64,000 nucleotides of DNA from Cellulosimicrobium protaetiae (lineage in GTDB: Bacteria > Actinomycetota > Actinomycetes > Actinomycetales > Cellulomonadaceae), in assembly GCF_009708005.2 (NCBI RefSeq), contig NZ_CP052757.1, positions 3,658,001-3,722,000 on the forward strand, given 5' to 3'. The notes below the pieces were generated by a model that saw only the letters and a program-made list of their open reading frames with translations, did not search any database and had not been told where the DNA came from. Shown here one piece after another: positions 9,846 through 20,037 of the stretch. The position numbers were made by a program, and so were the translations under genes. Numbering within the stretch: the stretch's first letter is position 1; the number at the start of each line of letters is the position of its first letter.

Positions 9846-10940
9846 TCACGGCTTGCGCGCTCGGGCCTGCCGCCACACCGCCGCGGTGCCGAGGGCAGCG
9901 ACGGCCGCGCCCGCCGCGCCCAGGGCCGCCGCGTCGCGTCCCCCGAACCGGATCCCCGCGACCCCCACCCGGCCGCGCACCTCCGCGAGCAGCACCTCGA
10001 GCGCGGCCGCGCCCGTCCAGGTCGGCTCCCACCCGGCGCCGTGCAGACGCCCGGCGGAGACCGACCAGGGGTGCACGACGAACGCGAGGTCGTTCGCCGG
10101 CGACGGCAGCACCCCGACCCGGTGCAGGCGCTCCGCCGCGCCGAAGGCCGTCGCCGGCGGGAGCTGGACCGTGCGCAGCCCGGCCGCCGCCGCGACCGTC
10201 TCGGAGTCGAGCTCGTCGGGCAGCCCGTCCCGCAGCGGGCCCGCGGTCAGGCCGCCGACCAGGCCGCCGTCGAGCGCGACGCGGACCGCCGAGACGACGT
10301 CCTCGACGTGCACGAGCTGCCACGTGCGCTCCCCGCCGCGCACCGTGAGAAGCCGTGGGGCCTCGAAGTGCCGGGTGAGGAGGGTGTCGATCCCCGGCCC
10401 GACGACGACCGCCGGCCGCACCAGGCCGAGCGGCACCCCGCGGAGCGCCTCGCGCAGCGCGTCCTCGAACGCGGCCACGTCCCCCGCGAACCCGGGGGCG
10501 TCGTCGACGGCGACCGGGTCGTCGTCCTCGATCACCGCGCGACCCGGCGTCGCCCCGTGCACCGCCGCCGAGGTCACCGCGACGACGTGCTCGATCCCCG
10601 CGGCGACCGCGGCCTCGCCCGCGCGCCGGCCGAGGAGCGCGAGCCGGGCACGCTGCTCGGCGTCGGTCTTCGCCCGCGGCGCCCCGAACTCCCCCGCGGG
10701 GGCGACGACGACGAGCCGGCGTGCGTCGTCGGGCCACCCGTCGGGGTCCACGGGAGACACGTCGGCCGCGCCCAGCCCCCGGCGGACCGCGTCCGCGACC
10801 TGACCGACCCCGACGACCACGACGGGGTCACGAGGCGGCACGACAGGCCCGGGTACCCGGGACTCCCCCGTGCCTCCGGGGGGCTGCCCCCCGGCGGGGA
10901 CCGCGTCGCTGCGCCGTGAGCGAACCCGGCCCTCGGACAT
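9846..10940 (-). CDS. NAD(P)-binding Rossmann-fold epimerase/dehydratase-like protein
   Basis: Resembles NAD-dependent epimerase/dehydratases of the extended SDR class. A glycine motif VVVVGVGQVADAVRR appears at residue 39, VVAVTSAAVHG in mid protein, LVRPAVVVGPG and QLVHVEDVVSAV later, and a hydrophobic C-terminal helix (AAALGAAGAAVAALGTAAVW) that may anchor it. The usual YxxxK pair is not obvious, so enzymatic activity is uncertain. The first 33 residues are low complexity and contain a 14-bp DNA palindrome (10848-10861). A GTG at 10841 (VPPRDPVVVVGVG) is therefore a credible alternative start. It diverges from the DUF2342 gene. Confidence 0.8.
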   Translation of the reverse strand: MSEGRVRSRRSDAVPAGGQPPGGTGESRVPGPVVPPRDPVVVVGVGQVADAVRRGLGAADVSPVDPDGWPDDARRLVVVAPAGEFGAPRAKTDAEQRARLALLGRRAGEAAVAAGIEHVVAVTSAAVHGATPGRAVIEDDDPVAVDDAPGFAGDVAAFEDALREALRGVPLGLVRPAVVVGPGIDTLLTRHFEAPRLLTVRGGERTWQLVHVEDVVSAVRVALDGGLVGGLTAGPLRDGLPDELDSETVAAAAGLRTVQLPPATAFGAAERLHRVGVLPSPANDLAFVVHPWSVSAGRLHGAGWEPTWTGAAALEVLLAEVRGRVGVAGIRFGGRDAAALGAAGAAVAALGTAAVWRQARARKP

Positions 10941-10976
10941 GGCCCAGCCCCCGTTCTCGGCGCTCGATCGTGGTTA

Positions 10977-10988
10977 CGGTGATCACCG
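10977..10988. promoter_or_regulatory. 12-bp perfect palindrome in a divergent promoter region
   Basis: CGGTGATCACCG lies in the 69-base gap between the Rossmann-fold gene (reverse) and the DUF2342 gene (forward). It could be an operator for either; no regulator is known. Confidence 0.3.
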
Positions 10989-11009
10989 ACGCTACCGTGA
11001 GGAGTCGCC

Positions 11010-12536
11010 ATGAGCAGCCTTCCCCCCGACCGCACACCCGGACCGGACGACGACACGCCCTTCGACCCGCGGTTCGAGGAGCTGCTCCGCTCGATGCTCG
11101 GACCCGACGCGGACGAGGCGCTGCGCGAGCTGCGCGCCCGCGGCCTCGACCCCCAGGCGCTCGCCGCCGGGGGCGCGGCCGACCCGCAGCTGTTCCAGCA
11201 CGTCCTCGCGCAGGTCCAGCGGCTGCTGTCGACGCCGAGCGACGGCCCCGTGAACACCGACGTCTCGCACGACGTCGCGCGCCAGGTCGCCGTCGCCGAG
11301 GGCGACCCCTCCGTCACGACGGCGCAGCAGCGGGCCGTCACCGAGTCGCTGTCCGTCGCCGAGCTGTGGCTCGACGCCGTGACCGACCTCCCGCCGTCGG
11401 GCGGACGCGCCCAGGCCTGGAGCCGCTCCGAGTGGGTAGAGCACACGCTCCCGGCGTGGAACGAGCTCGTCGCTCCGGTCGCCGCGTCCGTCGCCGACGC
11501 GCTCGCGACCGTCCTGCGCGACCAGCTCCCGGAGGGCCTCGGGGACGACCCGTCCGCGCTCCCGGGCGTCGGCTTCACGCTCCCGGGCCAGGTCCCCGGT
11601 CTGCCCGCGGGCGCGCTCGGGATGCCGGGCGACCCCGCGGCGCTCATGCAGCGCCTCGGCTCGGCCGTCTTCGGCATGCAGGTCGGCCAGGCCGCCGGGA
11701 CGCTGTCGCGCGAGGTCTTCGGTGCCACCGACGTGGGGCTCCCCCTGCTCGACCAGCCCGGGACGGTCCTGCTGCCGACGAACGTCGAGGCGTTCGCCGA
11801 GGGACTCGACGCGCCGGCCGAGGAGGTACGGCTCTTCCTCGCGCTCCGCGAGGCCGCCCACGCGCGCCTCTTCACGCACGTGTCGTGGCTGCGCGGGCAC
11901 CTGCGCAGCCTCGTCGACGCGTACGCGCGCGGCATCACGATCGACCTGTCCGCACTCGAGTCGCAGCTCGCCGACGTCGACCTCACCGACACCGGTGCCC
12001 TGCAGCAGGCGCTCTCGGGCGGTGTGTTCGGGCTCCAGAACACGCCCGAGCAGCAGGCGACGCTGCTCCGGCTGGAGACGACGCTCGCGCTCGTCGAGGG
12101 CTGGGTCGACGAGGTGACGGCGGCCGCGGCGCTCCCCCACCTGCCGCACGCCGTCCCGCTGCGCGAGATGCTGCGACGACGACGCGCGGCGGGCGGCCCC
12201 GCCGAGCACACCTTCGCGACCCTGGTCGGGCTGGAGCTGCGTCCCCGTCGCTCGCGCGACGCGGCGGCGCTCTGGGCGCTCATCGCCGCGCAGTCCGGGT
12301 CGAGCGCGCGCGACGGCGTGTGGGACCACCCCGACCTCCTGCCCGACGCGACGGACCTCGACGACCCGACGGGCTACGAGAGCCGGCGGGCCGTGACCCG
12401 CATCGAGGAGGCCGACGTCGACCGCGCCCTCGAGGAGATCTTCCGAGCCGCGGCGAGCGGCGGGTCGGACGAGGACCCGTCGACGGACGAGCCGCACGAC
12501 GACGGCACCACGGACGGGGACGGCGCCGCGCGCTGA
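11010..12536 (+). CDS. DUF2342 zinc-dependent metalloprotease-like protein
   Basis: A 508-residue cytosolic protein of the DUF2342/TIGR03624 family (Rv3195-like). The diagnostic segment is LREAAHARLFTHVSWLRGHL around residues 285-305, where the zincin-type helix reads R-E-A-A-H, so the first His of a classic HExxH is Arg. This leaves catalytic activity open. Other family parts are VFGMQVGQAAGTLSREVFG and the C-terminal WDHPDLLPDATDLDDP. The last 40 residues are acidic and disordered. ATG at 11010 has a strong upstream GTGAGGAG. It converges with a YgjP-type metallopeptidase. Confidence 0.92.
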   Translation: MSSLPPDRTPGPDDDTPFDPRFEELLRSMLGPDADEALRELRARGLDPQALAAGGAADPQLFQHVLAQVQRLLSTPSDGPVNTDVSHDVARQVAVAEGDPSVTTAQQRAVTESLSVAELWLDAVTDLPPSGGRAQAWSRSEWVEHTLPAWNELVAPVAASVADALATVLRDQLPEGLGDDPSALPGVGFTLPGQVPGLPAGALGMPGDPAALMQRLGSAVFGMQVGQAAGTLSREVFGATDVGLPLLDQPGTVLLPTNVEAFAEGLDAPAEEVRLFLALREAAHARLFTHVSWLRGHLRSLVDAYARGITIDLSALESQLADVDLTDTGALQQALSGGVFGLQNTPEQQATLLRLETTLALVEGWVDEVTAAAALPHLPHAVPLREMLRRRRAAGGPAEHTFATLVGLELRPRRSRDAAALWALIAAQSGSSARDGVWDHPDLLPDATDLDDPTGYESRRAVTRIEEADVDRALEEIFRAAASGGSDEDPSTDEPHDDGTTDGDGAAR

Positions 12537-12564
12537 GCCGACGGCGTCGACCCGGGCGGGCACC

Positions 12565-12589
12565 CCGACCCGGTCGACGACCCGGTCGG
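12565..12589. terminator. Stem-loop between convergent DUF2342 and metallopeptidase genes
   Basis: An 11-bp stem with one C-C mismatch and a 3-base loop sits in the 58-base gap between two convergent stops. No T-run follows on either side. Confidence 0.45.
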
Positions 12590-12594
12590 CCAGG

Positions 12595-13200
12595 TCAGGT
12601 CAGGGCGCGCCCGTCGGGGACCGCGTCGTCGCCCGAGTCCTCCCCCTCGTGGTCCGGGTCCTCGTGTGCCGGGTCCTCGTGGTCCGGGTCCTCGTGCCCG
12701 GCGTCGCGGGCGAAGGACACGCCCTCCAGGAAGCCGCGCGCCCGGTCGGTCCTCGGGTAGGCCTCGAGCAGCTTCCAGAAGCCGGGGCCGTGCCCGGCGT
12801 GGAGCAGGTGGGCGAGCTCGTGCAGCAGCACGTAGTCGAGCACCCAGGGCGGCATCCCCCGCACCCGGGTCGAGATGCGGATCGTCCCGTCGATGAGGGT
12901 GCACGACCCCCACCGTCGGTCCTGGTTGCCGGACCAGCGCACGCTCGTGGGGTGCGCCCGGCCGTCGAGGTACTTCTCGGACAGCTCCGCCGCCCGCCGC
13001 TCGAGCTCGTCGTCCGAGGGCCGTCGGCGGCGCTCGGAGTCGGCGAGGCGGTCGAGCATGCGCTGGACCCACTCACGCTCCTGCGCGCGCGTGAAGCGCG
13101 CCGGGATCGCGACGACGGTGCGCTCGCCGTCACGGTAGGCGCTCACCGTGCTCTTGCGTCGGCGGCTCCGCCGAACCTCCACGATCGTCTCCCGGGCCAC
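12595..13200 (-). CDS. YgjP-like (DUF45/M48-type) metallopeptidase
   Basis: A 201-residue protein. The core has RWGSCTLIDGTIRISTR, then DYVLLHELAHLLHAGHGPGFWKLLEAYP, i.e. the HELAH zinc helix followed by HGPGFW, which is typical of the YgjP/DUF45 family. The substrate is unknown. GTG at 13200 is preceded by TACGGT and six bases (leaderless type), which settles the start against a longer frame to 13293. The C-terminal tail is unusual: three to four 15-base units encode HEDP(D/A), giving a His/Asp/Glu-rich stretch that could bind metal. Confidence 0.87.
   Translation of the reverse strand: MARETIVEVRRSRRRKSTVSAYRDGERTVVAIPARFTRAQEREWVQRMLDRLADSERRRRPSDDELERRAAELSEKYLDGRAHPTSVRWSGNQDRRWGSCTLIDGTIRISTRVRGMPPWVLDYVLLHELAHLLHAGHGPGFWKLLEAYPRTDRARGFLEGVSFARDAGHEDPDHEDPAHEDPDHEGEDSGDDAVPDGRALT
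12646..12705 (-). repeat. Tandem 15-bp repeat in the metallopeptidase tail
   Basis: Four 15-base units (12646, 12661, 12676 and a degenerate one at 12691). The first and third are identical. They encode DPDHE/DPAHE and are likely to vary in copy number between strains. Confidence 0.85.
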
Positions 13201-13429
13201 GCTCAGACCGTAGTGGTTCTCGCCACGAAAAGGCAGGGCCCCACGCCGCGCGCGGCGGATTCCTGCGCCCGCAGGTCGAGCGGACGGCCGCAATGCTTGT
13301 GCGTCCGGTCAAGGGATGGCCCACGAAGCGCCCTGATCACGCCCTGTGGACAACCGGGGTCGGGCCGCGGCGCCGTGCCAGTCTGGACCGGGCGCCCGCC
13401 GCGCCGCACCCGACGACCACGGAGGAACC

Positions 13430-14545
13430 GTGCCCCGACGACGAGTCCTGCGACCCGAGGCCCGCGTCCTGCGACGCGCCCCCGGAGAGGTGCAGGTCGG
13501 CACCGACCCCCGCTGGTCGGTGCGGATCGCGGGGCTCGAGCCGGACGACGAGGAGTGGCTGGGCGCGCTCGCGTCCCCCGCCGGGCAGCGTGGCGGCCCG
13601 GACCCGGTGCTCGCGGGGGCGACGGGCGCTTCCGGCCGGCGCAGCGCCCTCGTCACGCTGCTCGAGGAGGCGCACCTGCTCGTCCCGGCACGACCGCGAC
13701 GTGCGGCCTCGACCGCGCCGGCGAACGGCCATGCCGACCTCGGCGTGCTCTCGGCCCTGCGGCCCGACGGCGCCGGGCACCGCGTGCTCGCGGCCCGCGC
13801 TCGGTCGACGGTCGCCGTCGTCGGGCTCGGGCGGGTGGGGGCGGCGCTCGCGCTGCACCTCGCGACCGCGGGGGTGGGCACGATCGTCGTCGACGACCCG
13901 GGCACCGTCCTCTCGACCGACGTCGGGTCGGGTGCGTACCGGGTCAGGGACGTGGGTGCGTCGCGCGAGGCGGCGGTCAGGAGGCTCGTCGAGGAGGTCG
14001 CGCCCGCCGTCGTGGTCGCCGGGACGTCGTCGGAGCGCACGACGGCCCACGTCCCGGCTCCACCACCCGACGTCGTCGTCGTGGTCGAGCACGGCGCGGC
14101 GGACCCGGGACGGGTCCGGCGGCTCGTGGGTGAGGGGGTCGCGCACCTGTCCGTCGTGGTGCGGGAGGCCGACGTCGTCGTGGGACCGTTCGTCCGGCCG
14201 GGGCTCGACCCGTGCCTGACGTGCGTGGACCTGCGCCAGGCGGACGTCGACCCGTGCTGGCCGCAGCTCGCGCGGCAGCTCAGGGAACGACGGCCTGCGG
14301 GGTCGTGCGAGGAGACGCTCGTCGCGGCGTCGGCGGCCGCCGTCGCGCTCGGTCAGGTCCTGGCAGCCCTGGACGGGCTGGTGCCCCGCGCAGCCACGGC
14401 CTGCATCGAGATCCCTGCTCCCGATGCCGTGCCGCGGCTGCGCGAGACGAGCCGCCACCCGCTCTGCGGGTGCGGCGAGCTGGCGCGCACGCCCCCGGAC
14501 GGGGCGCCGCTGCCCATGTCAGGCCGCCGTCGAGGCGCCGACTGA
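13430..14545 (+). CDS. Stand-alone ThiF/E1-like protein with zinc-ribbon cysteines
   Basis: A 371-residue protein with a ThiF/MoeB/E1-type Rossmann core, often annotated as a cyclodehydratase-domain or TOMM leader-binding-like protein. The nucleotide loop is VAVVGLGRVGAALALHLATAGVG (split: VAVVGLGRVG, then AALALHLATAG) near residues 127-150, followed by IVVDDPG. The cysteines CLTC (with DPCW soon after) and a C-terminal CGCGEL could form the structural zinc site of the family. The expected adenylation Arg and Lys residues cannot be placed with confidence. No YcaO, MoaD-like or RiPP precursor partner is seen nearby. GTG at 13430 has a strong GGAGGAA upstream. It converges on whiB7; the stop codons overlap by 27 bases. 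Confidence 0.78.
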   Translation: MPRRRVLRPEARVLRRAPGEVQVGTDPRWSVRIAGLEPDDEEWLGALASPAGQRGGPDPVLAGATGASGRRSALVTLLEEAHLLVPARPRRAASTAPANGHADLGVLSALRPDGAGHRVLAARARSTVAVVGLGRVGAALALHLATAGVGTIVVDDPGTVLSTDVGSGAYRVRDVGASREAAVRRLVEEVAPAVVVAGTSSERTTAHVPAPPPDVVVVVEHGAADPGRVRRLVGEGVAHLSVVVREADVVVGPFVRPGLDPCLTCVDLRQADVDPCWPQLARQLRERRPAGSCEETLVAASAAAVALGQVLAALDGLVPRAATACIEIPAPDAVPRLRETSRHPLCGCGELARTPPDGAPLPMSGRRRGAD

Positions 14546-14956
14546 CGCCCCGGCGCCGGCACGTGCGGCCTCCTGCACCTGGCGCTCGGCCTCGCGGGCG
14601 AGCACCTCGGCCTTGCTCGGACGGCCGCGACCGCGCTTGCGCGCGACGACGACGCCGTCCACGAAGACCTCTCCGCCCCAGACGCCCCAGGGCTCCCGAC
14701 GCTCGATCGCGCCGGCGAGGCAGCCCTCGACGAGGGGGCACGTGCGGCACAGTGCCTTGGCCTCCTCGACCTCGGCGGACCGCTCGGCGAACCAGAGCTC
14801 CGGGTCGTTGGTGCGGCAGGGAAGCAGGCCCGCGAGGAGACGGTCGAACTCCGCGGAGTCCTGCTCGCCGAGCGGGGTGGCCAGCGGTTGGTGGGGGACC
14901 CAGGGGCCGGATCCGCCCTGGGCAGTGATGTTGTCGAGCAGCGCGGTGAGCCGCAC
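14519..14956 (-). CDS. whiB7: WhiB-family transcription factor WhiB7 (WblC)
   Basis: A 145-residue Fe-S transcription factor. The four cluster ligands are Cys47, Cys70, Cys73 and Cys79; GVWGG is at 91-95; and the AT-hook RGRGRP is at 108-113, the combination specific to WhiB7. In mycobacteria and Streptomyces WhiB7 binds the SigA sigma subunit and AT-rich DNA next to the -35 to induce intrinsic antibiotic resistance. Its position next to uvrD2 and mycoredoxin is also as in mycobacteria. GTG at 14956 was chosen because GGAGG lies five bases upstream. A longer frame from ATG at 15031 (170 residues) has no such site. The N-terminus is longer than in mycobacterial WhiB7. Expression is likely controlled by the 400-base leader upstream. 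The 3' end overlaps the convergent ThiF-like gene. Confidence 0.92.
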   Translation of the reverse strand: MRLTALLDNITAQGGSGPWVPHQPLATPLGEQDSAEFDRLLAGLLPCRTNDPELWFAERSAEVEEAKALCRTCPLVEGCLAGAIERREPWGVWGGEVFVDGVVVARKRGRGRPSKAEVLAREAERQVQEAARAGAGASVGASTAA

Positions 14957-15078
14957 GATGTCCTCCAGTGATGTCCTGTCGTGGGTGTGAACGTCGTCGT
15001 CACAGGACCCGAGGACAGCGGTCCCCGTCATGGGAGAGACGGGAGAGACCGGTGATCCTCATCGGCAGACGTGTCCGG

Positions 15079-15118
15079 AGAACACGAAGGCCACGGGTCC
15101 GAGACGGACTCCGCGGCC
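15079..15118 (-). terminator. Predicted attenuator terminator in the whiB7 leader
   Basis: On the reverse strand GGCC-CGG-GTCCG pairs with CGGAC-CCG-GGCC around a 3-base loop (15089-15118) with one mismatch and one bulge, followed by TTCGTGTTCT. It lies 18 bases after the uORF stop and about 120 bases before the whiB7 start. The 5' arm contains CGGAGTCC (15106-15113), complementary to GGACTCCG inside the uORF (15218-15225), so an antiterminator fold is possible. Confidence 0.75.
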
Positions 15119-15126
15119 TGGAAGGT

Positions 15127-15145
15127 TCTGGTCGGTCAGACCAGA
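15127..15145 (-). promoter_or_regulatory. Hairpin over the whiB7 uORF stop codon
   Basis: TCTGGTC and GACCAGA form a 7-bp stem with a 5-base loop, and the uORF stop TGA (15136-15138) lies within the hairpin. Ribosome position at the stop would open it, so it may take part in choosing between terminator and antiterminator. Confidence 0.5.
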
Positions 15146-15291
15146 CGCGTCCTGGAGGCGGAGTCGGGAGCGGGGCGGGTGACGAAGGTGCCGCCGCGGT
15201 GCGCGGTTGCACGCGGACGGAGTCCTCCTGGCGTGCCCGTGTAGACGGACGCGTTATCCAGCAGGTGCGCCATGGCGATCTGGTTCTTCAT
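15136..15291 (-). CDS. 51-codon upstream ORF (leader peptide) of whiB7
   Basis: Starts with ATG at 15291 (MKNQIAMAHLLDNASVYTGT...) and ends in TGA at 15136. It is preceded by a purine-rich stretch with AGAGGGGG about 12 bases upstream; an in-frame GTG four codons earlier is possible. The predicted start of transcription near 15355 leaves about 64 untranslated bases. It carries the segment able to pair with the attenuator stem. WhiB7 genes in mycobacteria and Streptomyces are known to have a uORF whose translation under antibiotic stress relieves termination. The product itself probably has no function. Confidence 0.7.
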   Translation of the reverse strand: MKNQIAMAHLLDNASVYTGTPGGLRPRATAHRGGTFVTRPAPDSASRTRLV

Positions 15292-15361
15292 CAGCTTTCC
15301 CACCCCCTCTCTCCGTTCGGGGCCCGCCTTCCGGCGCGCCCCTCTCCAACAGGACTCGTCG

Positions 15362-15408
15362 ACCATATGTCGCGCGTCGCAGGACGCACAACTTATTTAC
15401 GAGAATTT
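15362..15408 (-). promoter_or_regulatory. whiB7 promoter with AT-rich WhiB7-binding patch
   Basis: On the reverse strand -35 TTGTGC (15386-15391) and -10 TATGGT (15362-15367) are 18 bases apart. Immediately upstream of the -35 is AAATTCTCGTAAATAAG, a striking AT-rich run in GC-rich DNA. WhiB7-dependent promoters are known to need AT-rich bases just upstream of the -35, so this fits positive autoregulation. Confidence 0.8.
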
Positions 15409-15439
15409 CTCCGACGAGTTTGTCGAGCCCCCTGCGGAG

Positions 15440-15457
15440 CCCGAGAACGGCTCCCCC
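15440..15457 (-). terminator. Small hairpin after uvrD2
   Basis: GGAGCC and GGCTCC with a 7-base loop directly follow the uvrD2 stop. It may separate uvrD2 from the whiB7 leader. There is no T-run. Confidence 0.35.
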
Positions 15458-17512
15458 TCAACGATCCGCACGACCCACGATCTCCAGGATCTCCGCGCCG
15501 TACCGCTCGATCTTCGCGGGCCCGAGTCCGTTGATCCGAGCGAGCGCGGCCGTGCTGGTGGGCCGGGTCTCCGCGATCGCGGCGAGCGTCGTGTCCACGA
15601 CCACCGTGAAGGCCGGCTTGTCCGTCTCCTGCGCGACCTGACGCCGCCACTCGCGCAGGCTCTCGAACAGCTCGCGGTCGTACTCCCCCGTGAGCCGCAG
15701 CTTCGCCTGCCCGGCGCGCGGGCGGCGCGTGCCGTGCGCCCCCGGCTCGTCCGGCCACAGCCCGTCGAGGAAGCGGGTCCGACGCCGCGTCGCGCGGCCA
15801 CCCGGGTTGCGCGACCGGGCGAACGACAGCTCGAGGTGCTCGCGGGCACGCGTGATGCCCACGTAGAGCAGGCGCCGCTCCTCCGCGATCGCCTCGTCGG
15901 TCTCCGCGAGCGAGATCGGCATGAGCCCCTCGCTCGTGCCCGCGAGGAACACGGCGTCCCACTCGAGGCCCTTGGCCGCGTGCAGCGACGCGAGCGTGAC
16001 GCCCTCCACGGTCGGGGCGTGCTGCGCCGCGGCGCGCTCGTCGAGCTCGGCGACGAAGGTCGCGACCGTCGGCGCCGGTCCCTCGGCCGCCTGCGCGAGC
16101 GCCGCGACGTCGTCCGCGAGCGCGACGAGCGCCTGCGTGGACTCCCACCGCTCGCGTGCCGCGCCGCGCGCCGCGGGCGGCTCGGGCGCCCAGCCGGCCG
16201 CCGCGAGGACGTCGCGCACCGTCTCGGGCATCGCGACCTCGGGGTCGGCCGAGCGAGCCGCCCCGCGCAGGAGCACGATCGCGTCGCGCACCTCCTTGCG
16301 CTGGAAGAAGCGCTCGCCGCCCCGGACGAGGTAGCCGATGCCGGCGTCCGCGAGCGCCGACTCGAACGCCTCCGACTGCGCGTTGGTGCGGTAGAGGACC
16401 GCGATCTCGCTCGCGCGCGTCCCCGCCGCGAGCAGGCGCGAGATCCGCTGGGCGATGCCGGTCGCCTCGGCCTCGTCGTCGTCGTACGCCGTGAACGCGA
16501 CCGGCGGGCCCGCGGGCCGCTGGGCGACGAGCTCGAGCGCCTGGTGCGCCCCGCCCGCGCGCCCGGCGCGCGCGAGGAGCTGGTTCGCGAGGTTCACCAC
16601 CTGCGGCGTCGAGCGGTAGTCGCGCACGAGCCGGATGACCTGGGCGCCCGGGTGCGTGCGCGAGAACGTGAGGAGGTGGTGCGGCGTCGCGCCCGTGAAC
16701 GAGTAGATCGTCTGCGACGGGTCCCCGACGACGCACAGCTCCTCACGCCCCCCGAGCCACTGGTCGAGGACGAACTGCTGGAGCGGCGAGACGTCCTGGT
16801 ACTCGTCGACGACGAAGTGGCGGTACTGGCGCCGCACCTCGTCCGCGACCCCGCCCTGCGTCGCGAGCATGTCGCCGAGCATGAGGAGCACGTCCTCGAA
16901 GTCGATGACCGAGCGCTCGGTCTTCACGTCCTCGTACGCGGTGATGAGGCGCGCGACGGTCTGGTGGTCGTACCCGGCGGGCGGCTCGCGGTCGATCGCC
17001 TCGCACGCCCGGACGTAGTCGTCCGCGGTGACGAGGGAGACCTTGGCCCACTCGACCTCGGACGACAGGTCGCGCACCGCGACGCGGTCCACGCCGACCC
17101 CGAGCCGGCGGGCCGACTCGGCGATCACCGGGGCCTTGTGCTCGAGGATGCGCGGCGGCGCGCCCCCGACGACCTTGGGCCAGAAGTATCCGAGCTGTCG
17201 TAGCGCCGCCGCGTGGAACGTGCGCGCCTGGACGCCCGTCGCCCCGAGCTCGCGCAGGCGCGTGCGCATCTCGCCCGCGGCCCGCGCGGTGAAGGTCACG
17301 GCGAGCACGCTCGTCGGGGCGTACACCCCGGTGCGGACGCCGTAGGCGATGCGGTGCGTGATCGCGCGCGTCTTGCCCGTCCCGGCCCCGGCGAGCACGC
17401 ACACCGGACCGCGCAGCGCGACGGCGACGTCGCGCTGGTCGGGGTCGAGAGCTTCGAGGATCTCGTCGGCGGTACGCAGGGACGGCGGACGTGAGACCGG
17501 TGGCGTGGACAT
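15458..17512 (-). CDS. uvrD2: UvrD-family DNA helicase UvrD2
   Basis: A 684-residue superfamily 1A 3'-to-5' helicase. Walker A is GAGTGKTR at residues 42-49. Walker B is VVDEYQDVSPLQQ, motif III is VVGDPSQTIYSFTGA, motif IV-like is LVRDYRSTPQVVNLANQLL, motif V is TLASLHAAKGLEWDAVFL and motif VI is ERRLLYVGITRAREHLELS. The last 70 residues form an HRDC domain (GLGPAKIERYGAEILEI), as in mycobacterial UvrD2. Mycobacterial UvrD2 also has a tetracysteine segment before HRDC, but no cysteines occur there in this protein. ATG at 17512 gives the normal N-terminus. It is transcribed toward whiB7. Confidence 0.94.
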   Translation of the reverse strand: MSTPPVSRPPSLRTADEILEALDPDQRDVAVALRGPVCVLAGAGTGKTRAITHRIAYGVRTGVYAPTSVLAVTFTARAAGEMRTRLRELGATGVQARTFHAAALRQLGYFWPKVVGGAPPRILEHKAPVIAESARRLGVGVDRVAVRDLSSEVEWAKVSLVTADDYVRACEAIDREPPAGYDHQTVARLITAYEDVKTERSVIDFEDVLLMLGDMLATQGGVADEVRRQYRHFVVDEYQDVSPLQQFVLDQWLGGREELCVVGDPSQTIYSFTGATPHHLLTFSRTHPGAQVIRLVRDYRSTPQVVNLANQLLARAGRAGGAHQALELVAQRPAGPPVAFTAYDDDEAEATGIAQRISRLLAAGTRASEIAVLYRTNAQSEAFESALADAGIGYLVRGGERFFQRKEVRDAIVLLRGAARSADPEVAMPETVRDVLAAAGWAPEPPAARGAARERWESTQALVALADDVAALAQAAEGPAPTVATFVAELDERAAAQHAPTVEGVTLASLHAAKGLEWDAVFLAGTSEGLMPISLAETDEAIAEERRLLYVGITRAREHLELSFARSRNPGGRATRRRTRFLDGLWPDEPGAHGTRRPRAGQAKLRLTGEYDRELFESLREWRRQVAQETDKPAFTVVVDTTLAAIAETRPTSTAALARINGLGPAKIERYGAEILEIVGRADR

Positions 17513-17653
17513 CACCCGCGATTCTCGCAGGCGCCGGTGACACGCGCGCCGGTCCGCGCGCACGGTGGGAACAGCACGGAAGCCACCGGTGTTACCGTCA
17601 CGACCGATCGACCGCGGCACGCGCCGCCCGGACCAGCACCAGGAGAGCCCTCG

Positions 17654-17920
17654 ATGAGCACCGCCCCGACCCTTCCCGACGCCGGCTCGATCGTCATGTA
17701 CTCGACGAGCTGGTGCGGGTACTGCCGCCGCCTGAAGACGCAGCTCGACTCCGAGGGCATCGGCTACACCGAGGTGAACATCGAGGAGACCCCGGGGACC
17801 GCGGAGTTCGTGGAGTCGGTGAACGGCGGCAACCAGACGGTCCCGACCGTCGTCTTCCCCGACGGCTCCGCCGCGACCAACCCGTCGCTCGCCGAGGTCA
17901 AGCAGCGCCTCGCCGCCTGA
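17654..17920 (+). CDS. mrx1: Mycoredoxin (glutaredoxin-like, Mrx1 type)
   Basis: An 88-residue thioredoxin-fold protein with redox motif Cys21-Gly-Tyr-Cys24 (SWCGYCRRLK) and the cis-proline segment QTVPTVVFPDG. CGYC and the position between uvrD2 and nudC identify it as mycoredoxin-1, which removes mycothiol from S-mycothiolated proteins in actinobacteria. ATG at 17654 has AGGAGA upstream. It diverges from uvrD2 and converges with nudC. Confidence 0.92.
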   Translation: MSTAPTLPDAGSIVMYSTSWCGYCRRLKTQLDSEGIGYTEVNIEETPGTAEFVESVNGGNQTVPTVVFPDGSAATNPSLAEVKQRLAA

Positions 17921-17927
17921 CCCACCT

Positions 17928-17988
17928 GCTGAGTGCTGGGTATCTGTCGTCCACGGCTCGTCGGGACGACGAATACCCAGCACTCAGC
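17928..17988. terminator. Long bidirectional stem-loop between mrx1 and nudC
   Basis: Arms 17928-17952 and 17964-17988 pair over about 25 bp with a single two-base mismatch. It fills the gap between the convergent genes. Confidence 0.85.
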
Positions 17989-18010
17989 GGTCAGCGTCGG
18001 CACCCGGTGG

Positions 18011-19045
18011 TCAGGGGTCGGGGAGGCGGTCGCCGAACCAGTCCTCGACGAGCGAGCGCGCGATGGACGCGCGGCCCGGGAGCAGCACCTCCCCGGAGCC
18101 GACCGCGGCGGCGAGCCCGGGGCGCGTGAACCACCGCGCGTCGGTGAGCTCGACGCCGTCGACCCGCAGGTCCGTCGTCAGCGCCCGCGCGGCGAACCCC
18201 AGCATGAGCGACGCCGGGAACGGCCACGGCTGGCTCCCGCGGTAGGCGACCTCGCCGACGACGACCCCCGCCTCCTCCGCGACCTCGCGCCGGACCGCGC
18301 TCTCCAGCGACTCGCCGGGCTCGACGTACCCGGCGAGCGTGGAGAAGCGCCGCTCGGGCCAGTGTGCGGCGTGCCCGAGCAGCAGCCGCTCGTCGTCGCC
18401 CTCGCCGTGCACGACCGTCATGATGACCGCCGGGTCCGTGCGTGGGTACAGCTCCACGCCCTGCGCGACGCACCGCCGCGTCCACCCGCCGTTCTCGACC
18501 GTCGTCCGGCCGCCGCAGCGCGGGCACCGGGTGTGGTTCGCGTGCCACGCCGCGAGCGCGACGGCCTCGGTCGCGAGCCCGGCGAGGGGCGCGTCGAGCC
18601 CGCCGACGAGCTCGCGCAGCCCCGACCACGACCGCTCGCGCGCGAGGACCGCGAACGGGTCGGACGCGTCGACGCCCTCGATGTCGACCTCCTCCGCGTC
18701 CGCGTCGTCGGGCAGGACGAGCGCGACGTACGTCGTGCCGTCGCCCTCCCCGAGGAAGAGCCAGCGCGCCTGGTCCTCGTCGGCCGCGACGCCGACGTCG
18801 GAGAGGTCCGCCGGGTCGAGCAGCGCGACGCCGTCCGTCGGGCTCGCCCCGGCGAGCGCGAGCCGACCGCGGTGGACGAGCACGACGCGCGTCGCGGGAT
18901 CTGTCCGGAGCGTCCGCACGAGGTCGGGCTCGGCGCGCCGGTGGGCCGCGCGGTCGAGGACCGCACCGTCGAGCGGCAGCGGGAGGTCGCGGAGGGTGGT
19001 CCTGGGGAGCGTGCCCGACGACGGCCGGGCGGCGGGGATGGTCAC
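18011..19045 (-). CDS. nudC: NADH pyrophosphatase / deNADding Nudix hydrolase NudC
   Basis: A 344-residue Nudix enzyme that cleaves NAD(H), and in other bacteria NAD caps on RNA. The Nudix box GYVEPGESLESAVRREVAEE is at about 239-258, and the NudC signature SQPWPFPASLMLGF follows. The zinc ribbon has C-x2-C-x14-C-x2-Q: Cys174, Cys177 and Cys192 are present, but the fourth ligand position (195) is Gln, so zinc binding may be weakened or completed by another residue. GTG at 19045 is preceded by TACGGT plus six bases, supporting this start over longer frames. Neighbours are mycoredoxin (convergent) and a phosphotransferase (divergent). Confidence 0.92.
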   Translation of the reverse strand: MTIPAARPSSGTLPRTTLRDLPLPLDGAVLDRAAHRRAEPDLVRTLRTDPATRVVLVHRGRLALAGASPTDGVALLDPADLSDVGVAADEDQARWLFLGEGDGTTYVALVLPDDADAEEVDIEGVDASDPFAVLARERSWSGLRELVGGLDAPLAGLATEAVALAAWHANHTRCPRCGGRTTVENGGWTRRCVAQGVELYPRTDPAVIMTVVHGEGDDERLLLGHAAHWPERRFSTLAGYVEPGESLESAVRREVAEEAGVVVGEVAYRGSQPWPFPASLMLGFAARALTTDLRVDGVELTDARWFTRPGLAAAVGSGEVLLPGRASIARSLVEDWFGDRLPDP

Positions 19046-19116
19046 CCTCCGACCGTAGGCCACGCGGACGGCGTGGGTGCCCCGGGACCCGGGCGGGGAG
19101 CGACTACCGTGGTCGG

Positions 19117-20037
19117 GTGCCTCGCTCACCGCTGACCCTCGCCGCGCTCGCGACCGCCGCCGTGCCGGGGCTCGACGCACGCAGCGCTCGGCCCGTCGAG
19201 GACCCGGGCGACTACGACACGGCCGTCGTCACCGATGCCGACGGGGCCCGGTGGACCGTGCGCGCCCCGCGCAGCCTCCAGGCAGGTGCGGCGCTCGAGG
19301 CCGAGGCGGAGCTCCTCACCTCGCTCCAGCTCTACGCCGACTCCGGGGTGCTCTCCTTCGCGGTCCCGCGCATCAGCGGCACGGCGCTCCTGCCGGAGGG
19401 CGGGCGCGCGGTCGTGCACCCGGCGCTCGACGGCACGGCGCTCGACGTGGACGGCCTGCGCCCGGGGCCGGGGCTCGCCGCCGACCTGGGGCGGGTGCTC
19501 GCGTCGATCCACGAGCTGCCCCGCACGATCGTCGACGACGCGGGCCTGCCCGGGTACGACGTCGAGGAGTACCGCGCGCGCCGGATGGCCGAGCTCGACG
19601 AGGCCGCGGCGACCGGGAAGGTGCCGGCGGCCCTCCTGCGCCGCTGGGAGACCGCGCTCGAGGACGTGTCCCTGTGGCGGTACCAGCCCGTCGTCGTGCA
19701 CGGCGACCTCGGCCCCGAGCAGGTCCTCGTCGCGCGCGGCCGCGTCGTCGCCGTGACCGACTGGGCGAGCGCGCGCGTCGCCGACCCCGCGGACGACCTC
19801 GCGTGGCTGCTCGTGTCCGCCCCGCCCGAGGCGATCGACTCGATCATGGAGGCGTACCAGCTGCGCCGCACCGAGCTCACGGACAAGAACCTCGTGGACC
19901 GCGCGCTCCTCGTCGGCGAGCTCGCGCTCGCGCGCTGGCTCCTGCACGGCGTGCGGCACGGGCTCGACGACGTCGTCGCCGACGCGCTCGACATGCTCGC
20001 CGACCTGGACGAGGCGACGCAGGGCGCCGACGACTGA
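19117..20037 (+). CDS. Phosphotransferase of the aminoglycoside/macrolide kinase fold
   Basis: A 306-residue APH-fold protein. The catalytic loop is VVVHGDLGPEQVLV (HGD with the catalytic Asp), where the Asn usually found five residues after the Asp is replaced by Gln. The metal-binding equivalent of DFG is VTDWASARVADPADDLAWLL. The N-terminal lobe has WTVRAPRSLQAGAALEAEAELL in place of the usual Lys/Glu pair (split: WTVRAPRS, then AALEAEAELL). The substrate is unknown and could be an antibiotic or a metabolite. GTG at 19117 has TACCGT six bases upstream (leaderless type). Closeness to whiB7 makes a resistance role worth testing, but no WhiB7-type AT patch is seen before it. Confidence 0.85.
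   Translation: MPRSPLTLAALATAAVPGLDARSARPVEDPGDYDTAVVTDADGARWTVRAPRSLQAGAALEAEAELLTSLQLYADSGVLSFAVPRISGTALLPEGGRAVVHPALDGTALDVDGLRPGPGLAADLGRVLASIHELPRTIVDDAGLPGYDVEEYRARRMAELDEAAATGKVPAALLRRWETALEDVSLWRYQPVVVHGDLGPEQVLVARGRVVAVTDWASARVADPADDLAWLLVSAPPEAIDSIMEAYQLRRTELTDKNLVDRALLVGELALARWLLHGVRHGLDDVVADALDMLADLDEATQGADD

What the first reader, a model, noticed from the sequence alone, without database searches (positions are those of the whole stretch)
14957..15457. Complete attenuation-type leader upstream of whiB7
Seen: AT-rich patch abutting a TTGTGC -35, TATGGT -10, a 51-codon uORF, a hairpin over its stop, an intrinsic terminator 18 bases later, and 8 bases in the uORF (15218-15225) complementary to the terminator's 5' arm (15106-15113). 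Known: whiB7/wblC genes in mycobacteria and Streptomyces use a uORF and terminator to sense translation-blocking antibiotics, and WhiB7 binds AT-rich DNA by the -35. Inference: stalled or slow ribosomes on the uORF decide between terminator and antiterminator. The uORF sequence and pairing segment in this lineage may be undescribed.
Basis: partly seen in the sequence, partly recalled or inferred. Interest (0 to 1): 0.75.

Follow-up and report, generated by a model that had tools for sequence, protein, structure and literature searches.

The report
Antibiotic-sensing RNA switch before whiB7
This is a new example of a known RNA switch that lets soil bacteria turn on a master antibiotic-resistance gene when protein synthesis is blocked; its tiny leader protein also carries a conserved pattern, known from other genes, at which macrolide antibiotics make ribosomes stall, which could explain how such a drug is sensed and can be tested directly.

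Summary
This is the published whiB7/wblC attenuator in a Cellulosimicrobium-like actinobacterium; the system is not new. The 8-base match at 15218-15225 is at chance level (8 of 60 shuffles reach it) and occurs in 11 of 106 family leaders. The conserved antiterminator strand is GACUCCGC (15165-15158) at the uORF's 3' end: all eight pairs in 87 of 106 leaders, with a few compensatory changes, as in the competing terminator. New here: Arg-X-Arg in 95 of 106 uORFs against 23.9 expected; other spacings give at most about twice expectation. The motif lies mostly 33-45 nt upstream of the antiterminator strand. Arg/Lys-X-Arg/Lys is the known macrolide/ketolide arrest motif; a 2025 paper says stalling in the whiB7 uORF had not been tested, so this names codons to test. 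Against: uORF pN/pS is about 1 and Streptomyces-type uORFs lack the motif near the switch.

The parts
15392..15398 (-). AT-rich box AAATAAG next to the -35, presumed WhiB7 contact (autoregulation)
   Evidence: Sequence; similar box next to the -35 in the rows shown (64 of 106 promoters found by a strict search); the WhiB7 role is from established knowledge.
15386..15391 (-). -35 TTGTGC
   Evidence: TTGTGC in 45 of the 64 promoters found, spacing 18 in 61 of 64
15362..15367 (-). -10 TATGGT
   Evidence: TATGGT 25, TAGGGT 13, TACGGT 6 of 64
15136..15291 (-). uORF, 51 codons plus TGA; SD-like AGGGGGTG upstream
   Evidence: relatives
15211..15219 (-). Arg-Pro-Arg (codons 25-27), candidate macrolide/ketolide arrest motif
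   Evidence: R.R in 95 of 106 family uORFs vs 23.9 expected; 45 nt before the antiterminator strand
15218..15225 (-).
   Evidence: 11 of 106 leaders; chance-level match
15158..15165 (-). Antiterminator 5' strand GACTCCGC (codons of APDSA)
   Evidence: 8 of 8 pairs in 87 of 106 leaders; compensatory changes; fold (its printed label is one base high; recounted)
15127..15145 (-). Stop-codon hairpin, TGA at the start of its loop; apex of the antiterminator
   Evidence: by eye the stem recurs with different sequences in the family alignment, not counted
15089..15118 (-). Intrinsic terminator hairpin; 15114-15107 (GCGGAGTC) is the strand shared with the antiterminator
   Evidence: homologous hairpin in 96 of 108 leaders from other families of the class
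15079..15088 (-). Terminator tail TTCGTGTTCT
   Evidence: T-rich tails in relatives
14519..14956 (-). whiB7 (GTG start; 145 aa)
   Evidence: Pfam Whib 57.4 bits; no NCBIfam family at E 0.001; in own genome 1.4e-93, next WhiB-like protein 6.8e-9

Best explanation
A ribosome-mediated transcription attenuator of the whiB7/wblC type. RNA polymerase starts near 15355 (inferred from the -10) at a promoter presumably fed back by WhiB7. A ribosome translates the 51-codon uORF. If it runs freely to the stop codon it opens the stop hairpin and sits between the two antiterminator strands, so the terminator (15118-15089) forms and whiB7 is not transcribed. Shown by sequence: both exclusive structures, their conservation and some compensatory changes. 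Inferred: the dynamics. Further inference, less sure: the conserved Arg-X-Arg motif of the uORF is a built-in stall site for macrolide/ketolide-bound ribosomes, placed so that the stalled ribosome leaves the antiterminator strand free.
For: Terminator in 106 of 110 family leaders, each with a candidate uORF ending near it. Antiterminator pairs: 810 of 848 cells standard, 87 of 106 leaders with all eight. On 40 of these leaders, antiterminator and terminator each have 3 pairs changed on both sides (0 of 500 shuffles each), and sliding the partner removes the pairing. Fold: antiterminator -33.3, terminator hairpin -24.2 kcal/mol; with the terminator's 3' arm not yet made, the antiterminator is the predicted fold. 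Promoter conserved. Homologous terminator in 96 of 108 class leaders. R.R motif 95 of 106 vs 23.9; one leader per genus 17 of 19 vs 4.4; in the 106-row alignment the two Arg are the only columns at 80% or more apart from the start M, one G and P, D, S of the tail. The published system has the same plan (passages).
Against: No transcript or ribosome data. With everything transcribed the predicted minimum-energy fold contains the terminator, so antitermination must be kinetic. The compensatory changes rest on 3 cells of 320 and 3 of 479, one sequence per pair, and related sequences can exceed such shuffles without structure. 19 of 106 leaders lack one or more of the eight pairs at the aligned place; five of them (L070, L089, L091, L097, L098) have GACTCC nearer the stop. 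In 23 one-per-family class leaders the near-stop helix is not better than the next segment upstream (p 0.31), only better than shuffles (p 1.5e-4). uORF pN/pS is about 1. 11 of 106 family uORFs lack R.R.
Confidence: 0.87

Rival explanations
1. One reading: the antiterminator uses GGACTCCG at 15218-15225.
For: Perfect 8-base complement; in this genome it is the best-scoring helix (22.5, where GACTCCGC scores 22 in other leaders).
Against: Score reached by 8 of 60 shuffles; present in 11 of 106 family leaders, all of one genus, and these also keep the other strand (none is among the 19 exceptions). No compensatory evidence.
Confidence: 0.07
2. General sensor only: any slow ribosome (amino-acid shortage, any inhibitor) on the uORF releases the antiterminator; the Arg-X-Arg motif is not a drug-specific stall site but a mild, drug-free slow point or a by-product.
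For: Published induction of whiB7/wblC by several kinds of inhibitor and by amino-acid starvation (passages). Streptomyces-type uORFs lack the motif near the switch. The tlrB leader with this motif is a 9-residue peptide with the motif at its end, unlike here.
Against: The excess is strongest at spacing one: R.R 95 of 106 vs 23.9, RR 23 vs 24.6, R..R 41 vs 23.8, R...R 31 vs 22.7, R....R 48 vs 22.6; also in other families with Lys allowed, 45 of 57 vs 21.7. 36-residue segments of gene-like ORFs of the window show no excess (56 of 279 vs 59.4).
Confidence: 0.35
3. The Arg-X-Arg codons are kept for an RNA reason (a pairing of CGN codons), not for the peptide.
For: pN/pS about 1. None of the 190 Arg codons of the last motifs is AGA/AGG, where gene-like ORFs of the window use 2.5%. 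CGT is over-used in R.R motifs (102 of 251 Arg codons; 10% in gene-like ORFs).
Against: Third bases vary (CGT, CGC, CGG, CGA) and X varies (A, L, P, V, T and others); in other families 18 of the 45 uORFs with the motif have one with Lys.
Confidence: 0.12

Closest known systems
whiB7/wblC uORF-terminator leader of Mycobacterium and Streptomyces (Morris 2005, Burian and Thompson 2018, Lee 2022: seen only as citations; Dinan 2014 PMC4128351, PMC10727445, PMC13236596, PMC11550727: passages read)
   Same: WhiB7-type promoter, long leader, uORF with SD, Rho-independent terminator, antiterminator that uses overlapping sequence of uORF and terminator, same downstream gene.
   Different: Different uORF peptide and pairing sequence (GACUCCGC/GCGGAGUC); the stop codon lies in the loop of the antiterminator's apex hairpin. 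Whether Lee 2022 already describes these for this family could not be read.
tlrB (yxjB) leader of Bacillus subtilis, RYR arrest motif (PMC6851288, passages)
   Same: Transcription attenuation with an Arg-X-Arg motif in the leader peptide, shown there to stall tylosin-bound ribosomes.
   Different: 9-residue peptide with the motif at its end; the stalled ribosome itself blocks the terminator; also translation attenuation. Here the motif is internal, upstream of a separate antiterminator strand.
ErmDL leader peptide, Arg-Leu-Arg (PMC8298421, abstract and outline)
   Same: Arg-X-Arg as drug-dependent arrest site used to control a resistance gene.
   Different: Stall mechanism known by structure, gene unrelated to whiB7; motif near the N-terminus (recalled).
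trp-type amino-acid attenuators, e.g. ilvB1 of M. tuberculosis (PMC13236596, passages)
   Same: Ribosome position on a uORF chooses between terminator and antiterminator.
   Different: Codons for the sensed amino acids are the sensor; no such run is evident here.

Membership tests
whiB7/wblC uORF attenuator | Controls a WhiB7 orthologue | tested here: met
   Pfam Whib; no NCBIfam hit; single strong WhiB7 in own genome; just upstream a UvrD/PcrA-like helicase (below curated cut-offs) with a RecQ-like C-terminus, the uvrD2-whiB7 order of mycobacteria as recalled
whiB7/wblC uORF attenuator | uORF in the leader, conserved among relatives | tested here: met
   but pN/pS about 1
whiB7/wblC uORF attenuator | Rho-independent terminator between uORF and whiB7 | tested here: met
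   106 of 110 family and 96 of 108 class leaders; termination itself not tested
whiB7/wblC uORF attenuator | Antiterminator exclusive with the terminator, part of it in the uORF | tested here: met
   by sequence:
whiB7/wblC uORF attenuator | AT-rich WhiB7 site at the -35 | tested here: met
   sequence and conservation only; binding not tested
whiB7/wblC uORF attenuator | Induction by translation inhibitors through read-through | not testable with these tools
   needs RNA data
Rfam family | Match to a described RNA family | tested here: not met
   window 10000-20000, E up to 5: two matches below their gathering scores, neither on the leader
Macrolide/ketolide arrest leader peptides (+x+) | Arg/Lys-X-Arg/Lys in the leader peptide | tested here: met
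   R-P-R at codons 25-27; R.R in 95 of 106 family uORFs
Macrolide/ketolide arrest leader peptides (+x+) | Drug-dependent ribosome arrest at the motif | not testable with these tools
   needs toeprinting

The most novel reading that the evidence does not exclude
In many actinomycete families the whiB7 uORF is a true macrolide/ketolide-sensing arrest peptide: a conserved Arg/Lys-X-Arg/Lys site stalls drug-bound ribosomes upstream of the antiterminator strand. WhiB7 induction by these drugs would then be a programmed stall, not merely general slowing of translation.
Probability: 0.5. Interest if true: 0.65.

Novelty: new member of a known kind. Interest (0 to 1): 0.48.

Why it matters
WhiB7 governs intrinsic antibiotic resistance in actinobacteria. 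It has been unclear where, or whether, drug-bound ribosomes stall on its uORF: a 2025 eLife paper states this had not been tested (PMC12121999, passage). A motif found in 17 of 19 genera (one leader each), mostly at a similar distance from a co-varying antiterminator strand, names the codons to test and predicts which drug class depends on them. The correction of the pairing strand matters to anyone who would dissect this leader.

Tried and rejected
Rfam gave nothing on the leader. The generic promoter/terminator scan gave nothing. The hypothesis that the uORF peptide as a whole is under purifying selection was tested and not supported: pN/pS 0.98 in 12 leaders of the window's genus and 0.92 in 11 of genus g7; in the last 30 to 12 codons of the latter, 1.83. 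Other frames as a control for R.R were little use because Arg is so common there that the expectation is near saturation (92 and 87 of 106 vs about 86). Copies of the switch upstream of other genes: the model R1 was searched in 39 genomes; 31 matched. The 24 matches at E 1e-12 or better are in 24 genomes, all next to the whiB7 places. Of 12 weaker ones, 7 are the best hit of their genome and 5 are second hits (E 2.9e-4 to 3.7e-3); the second hits were not followed. An alanine-spacing signal: no clear excess of A.A in the family (58 of 106 vs 51.2).

Limits of the counts: 110 of the 142 family genomes with a WhiB7 match were fetched, and 108 leaders of the 244 class genomes with a match. For the uORFs the frame and start were picked by SD score and stop position, with hand choices for L015, L027, L070, L083, L096, L101 and the window's genus; the frame is doubtful in L083. 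In the R.R counts the start residue and the last 14 codons (family) or 8 (class) were dropped; R.R in the dropped 14 is 14 of 106 vs 8.6 expected, the window's own RTR among them. The dropping also sets a floor of about 12-15 nt on the motif-antiterminator distance. The class count used 57 of 96 uORFs (SD score of 5 or more), which leaves out all 24 Streptomyces-type ones (44 of 51 named Streptomyces loci share their FRG..PWSDPA ending); in these 24 an Arg/Lys-X-Arg/Lys is in 17 within 60 codons of the stop, 16 times RER some 50 codons before the stop, perhaps before the true start. Class families f12, f19, f36 and f37 (8 uORFs) show none. One search printed the antiterminator coordinates one base too high; the report uses 15165-15158, recounted.

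Full report
What is there. On the minus strand, in order: an AT-rich box and a TTGTGC-N18-TATGGT promoter, a 51-codon uORF (15291-15136 with its stop), a hairpin at the uORF stop, an intrinsic terminator (15118-15089, tail to 15079) and whiB7 from GTG 14956. The protein is a Whib-family protein by Pfam, without an NCBIfam match, and the only strong WhiB7 in its genome. Upstream lies a UvrD/PcrA-like helicase with a RecQ-like end, matching the uvrD2-whiB7 neighbourhood of mycobacteria as I recall it.

Conservation. Of 150 genomes of the family 142 have a WhiB7 at E 1e-20 or better. I took 110 leaders. 106 have the terminator GGCCGCGGAGTCC or a close variant, each with a candidate uORF ending near it; two of the other four still show a CCGCGG hairpin (L112, L113). 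Among 108 leaders from other families of the class, 96 have a homologous hairpin. The promoter was found by a strict search in 64 of 106. A covariance model of the stretch finds one place in the own genome, and Rfam gave no match on it.

The switch. The segment GACUCCGC can pair with GCGGAGUC of the terminator's 5' arm: all eight pairs in 87 of 106 leaders, 810 of 848 cells. Its start lies 27 or 30 nt before the stop codon in 86 of the 95 leaders measured. On a genus-spread subset of 40 of the 106, 98.1% of cells are paired and three pairs show a change on both sides, one sequence each; 0 of 500 shuffles reach either value, 18 of 500 reach the number of pair types, and slid versions fall to 29-49% paired. 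The terminator behaves likewise: 97.7% paired (1 of 500), three pairs changed on both sides, one sequence each (0 of 500), pair types 8 of 500. Related sequences can exceed such shuffles, so this is support, not proof. Because one strand serves both helices, changes can come in threes: three g13 leaders (L061, L069, L083) have GACTCCAC / GTGGAGTC with a matching CCACGG 3' arm, and L088 has GACTCCGT / ACGGAGTC with CCGTGG. In other families the pairing sequence differs but a partner is again found, such as GTCCGTGG / CCACGGAC in family f10 (read by eye, e.g. L214; likely Mycobacteriaceae, not verified by name) and TTCCGTGG in the Streptomyces type. Over 96 class leaders the near-stop helix beats shuffles (p 4e-13) and the next segment upstream (p 7e-6); with one leader per family (23) only the first holds (p 1.5e-4 and 0.31). 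Folding the free RNA downstream of a ribosome stalled at the Arg-X-Arg motif, before the terminator's 3' arm exists, gives the antiterminator with the stop hairpin at its tip; with all of it made, the fold contains the terminator; downstream of a ribosome at the stop only the terminator is left.

GGACTCCG at 15225-15218 matches as described, but a match of that quality arises in 8 of 60 shuffles and it occurs in 11 of 106 leaders. I therefore move the antiterminator strand to 15165-15158.

The Arg-X-Arg motif. With the antiterminator-coding tail removed, R.R occurs in 95 of 106 family uORFs against 23.9 expected from shuffling each peptide; RR 23 vs 24.6, R..R 41 vs 23.8, R...R 31 vs 22.7, R....R 48 vs 22.6; with one leader per genus R.R 17 of 19 vs 4.4. 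In a 106-row alignment, columns at 80% or more are the start M, two R separated by one column (94 and 87 of 106), one G, and P, D and S of the tail. In the 15 Isoptericola-type uORFs (genus g21) both R are 15 of 15 while X is A, V, L or I. 77 of 136 R.R occurrences end 20-24 codons before the stop. The last motif ends 33-45 nt before the antiterminator strand in 65 of 95 leaders and never less than 18, though the count itself set a floor of about 12-15. In 57 class uORFs with a good SD, Arg/Lys-X-Arg/Lys is in 45 vs 21.7, while spacings 0, 2 and 3 give 28, 18 and 14 vs about 21. Segments of gene-like ORFs of the window show no such excess (56 of 279 vs 59.4). Arg/Lys-X-Arg/Lys is the motif at which ketolides predominantly stall ribosomes (abstract of PMC8298421) and which controls tlrB (passages of PMC6851288).

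Against that reading. Inside genera, replacement and silent differences in the uORF are about equally frequent, so the rest of the peptide is little constrained or the RNA constrains silent sites as well. 11 of 106 family uORFs lack R.R, Streptomyces-type uORFs lack the motif near the switch, and the 8 uORFs of class families f12, f19, f36 and f37 have none, although wblC is inducible in Streptomyces. The known leaders with this motif that I saw or recall are short. The drug effect is thus an inference.

Known or new. Reviews and papers state the uORF, terminator and antiterminator for whiB7/wblC (passages of PMC11550727, PMC10727445, PMC13236596, PMC13393426; PMC4128351 for uORF and terminator). 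Lee 2022 and Poulton 2024 were not held. PMC12121999 (2025) says stalling within the whiB7 uORF had not been tested (passage). My ten searches (one search listed 15 of 110 papers) listed no paper whose title or shown abstract start ties whiB7 to the +x+ motif; I read passages of a few only, and most subscription papers are not in the library, so this is not proof of absence.

Noticed in passing
   Followed up: no
class uORFs, e.g. L147, L152, L155, L183: Many end in WSPPV or GPPV before the stop; the CCACCGGTC codons form the 5' arm of the stop hairpin, so the Pro-Pro-Val ending may be an RNA constraint.
   Followed up: partly
GGCCGCGG / CCGCGGCC terminator stem, 15118-15089 and relatives: The stem is nearly invariant, perhaps more than pairing alone would need: 6 of 12 pairs never vary in 40 family leaders, and the outer stem recurs over the class.
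   Followed up: partly
window 17537-17920 (+) and 18011-19180 (-): Glutaredoxin-like and NUDIX/NudC-like ORFs beside the helicase; with whiB7 this resembles the mycobacterial nudC-mrx1-uvrD2-whiB7 order (recalled; domains not searched).
   Followed up: no
window 13346-14545 (+): ThiF-family ORF whose 3' end overlaps the 3' end of whiB7 by 27 bases on the other strand.
   Followed up: no
uORF Arg codons: CGT makes up 102 of 251 Arg codons in R.R motifs but 10% of Arg codons in gene-like ORFs of the window.
   Followed up: partly
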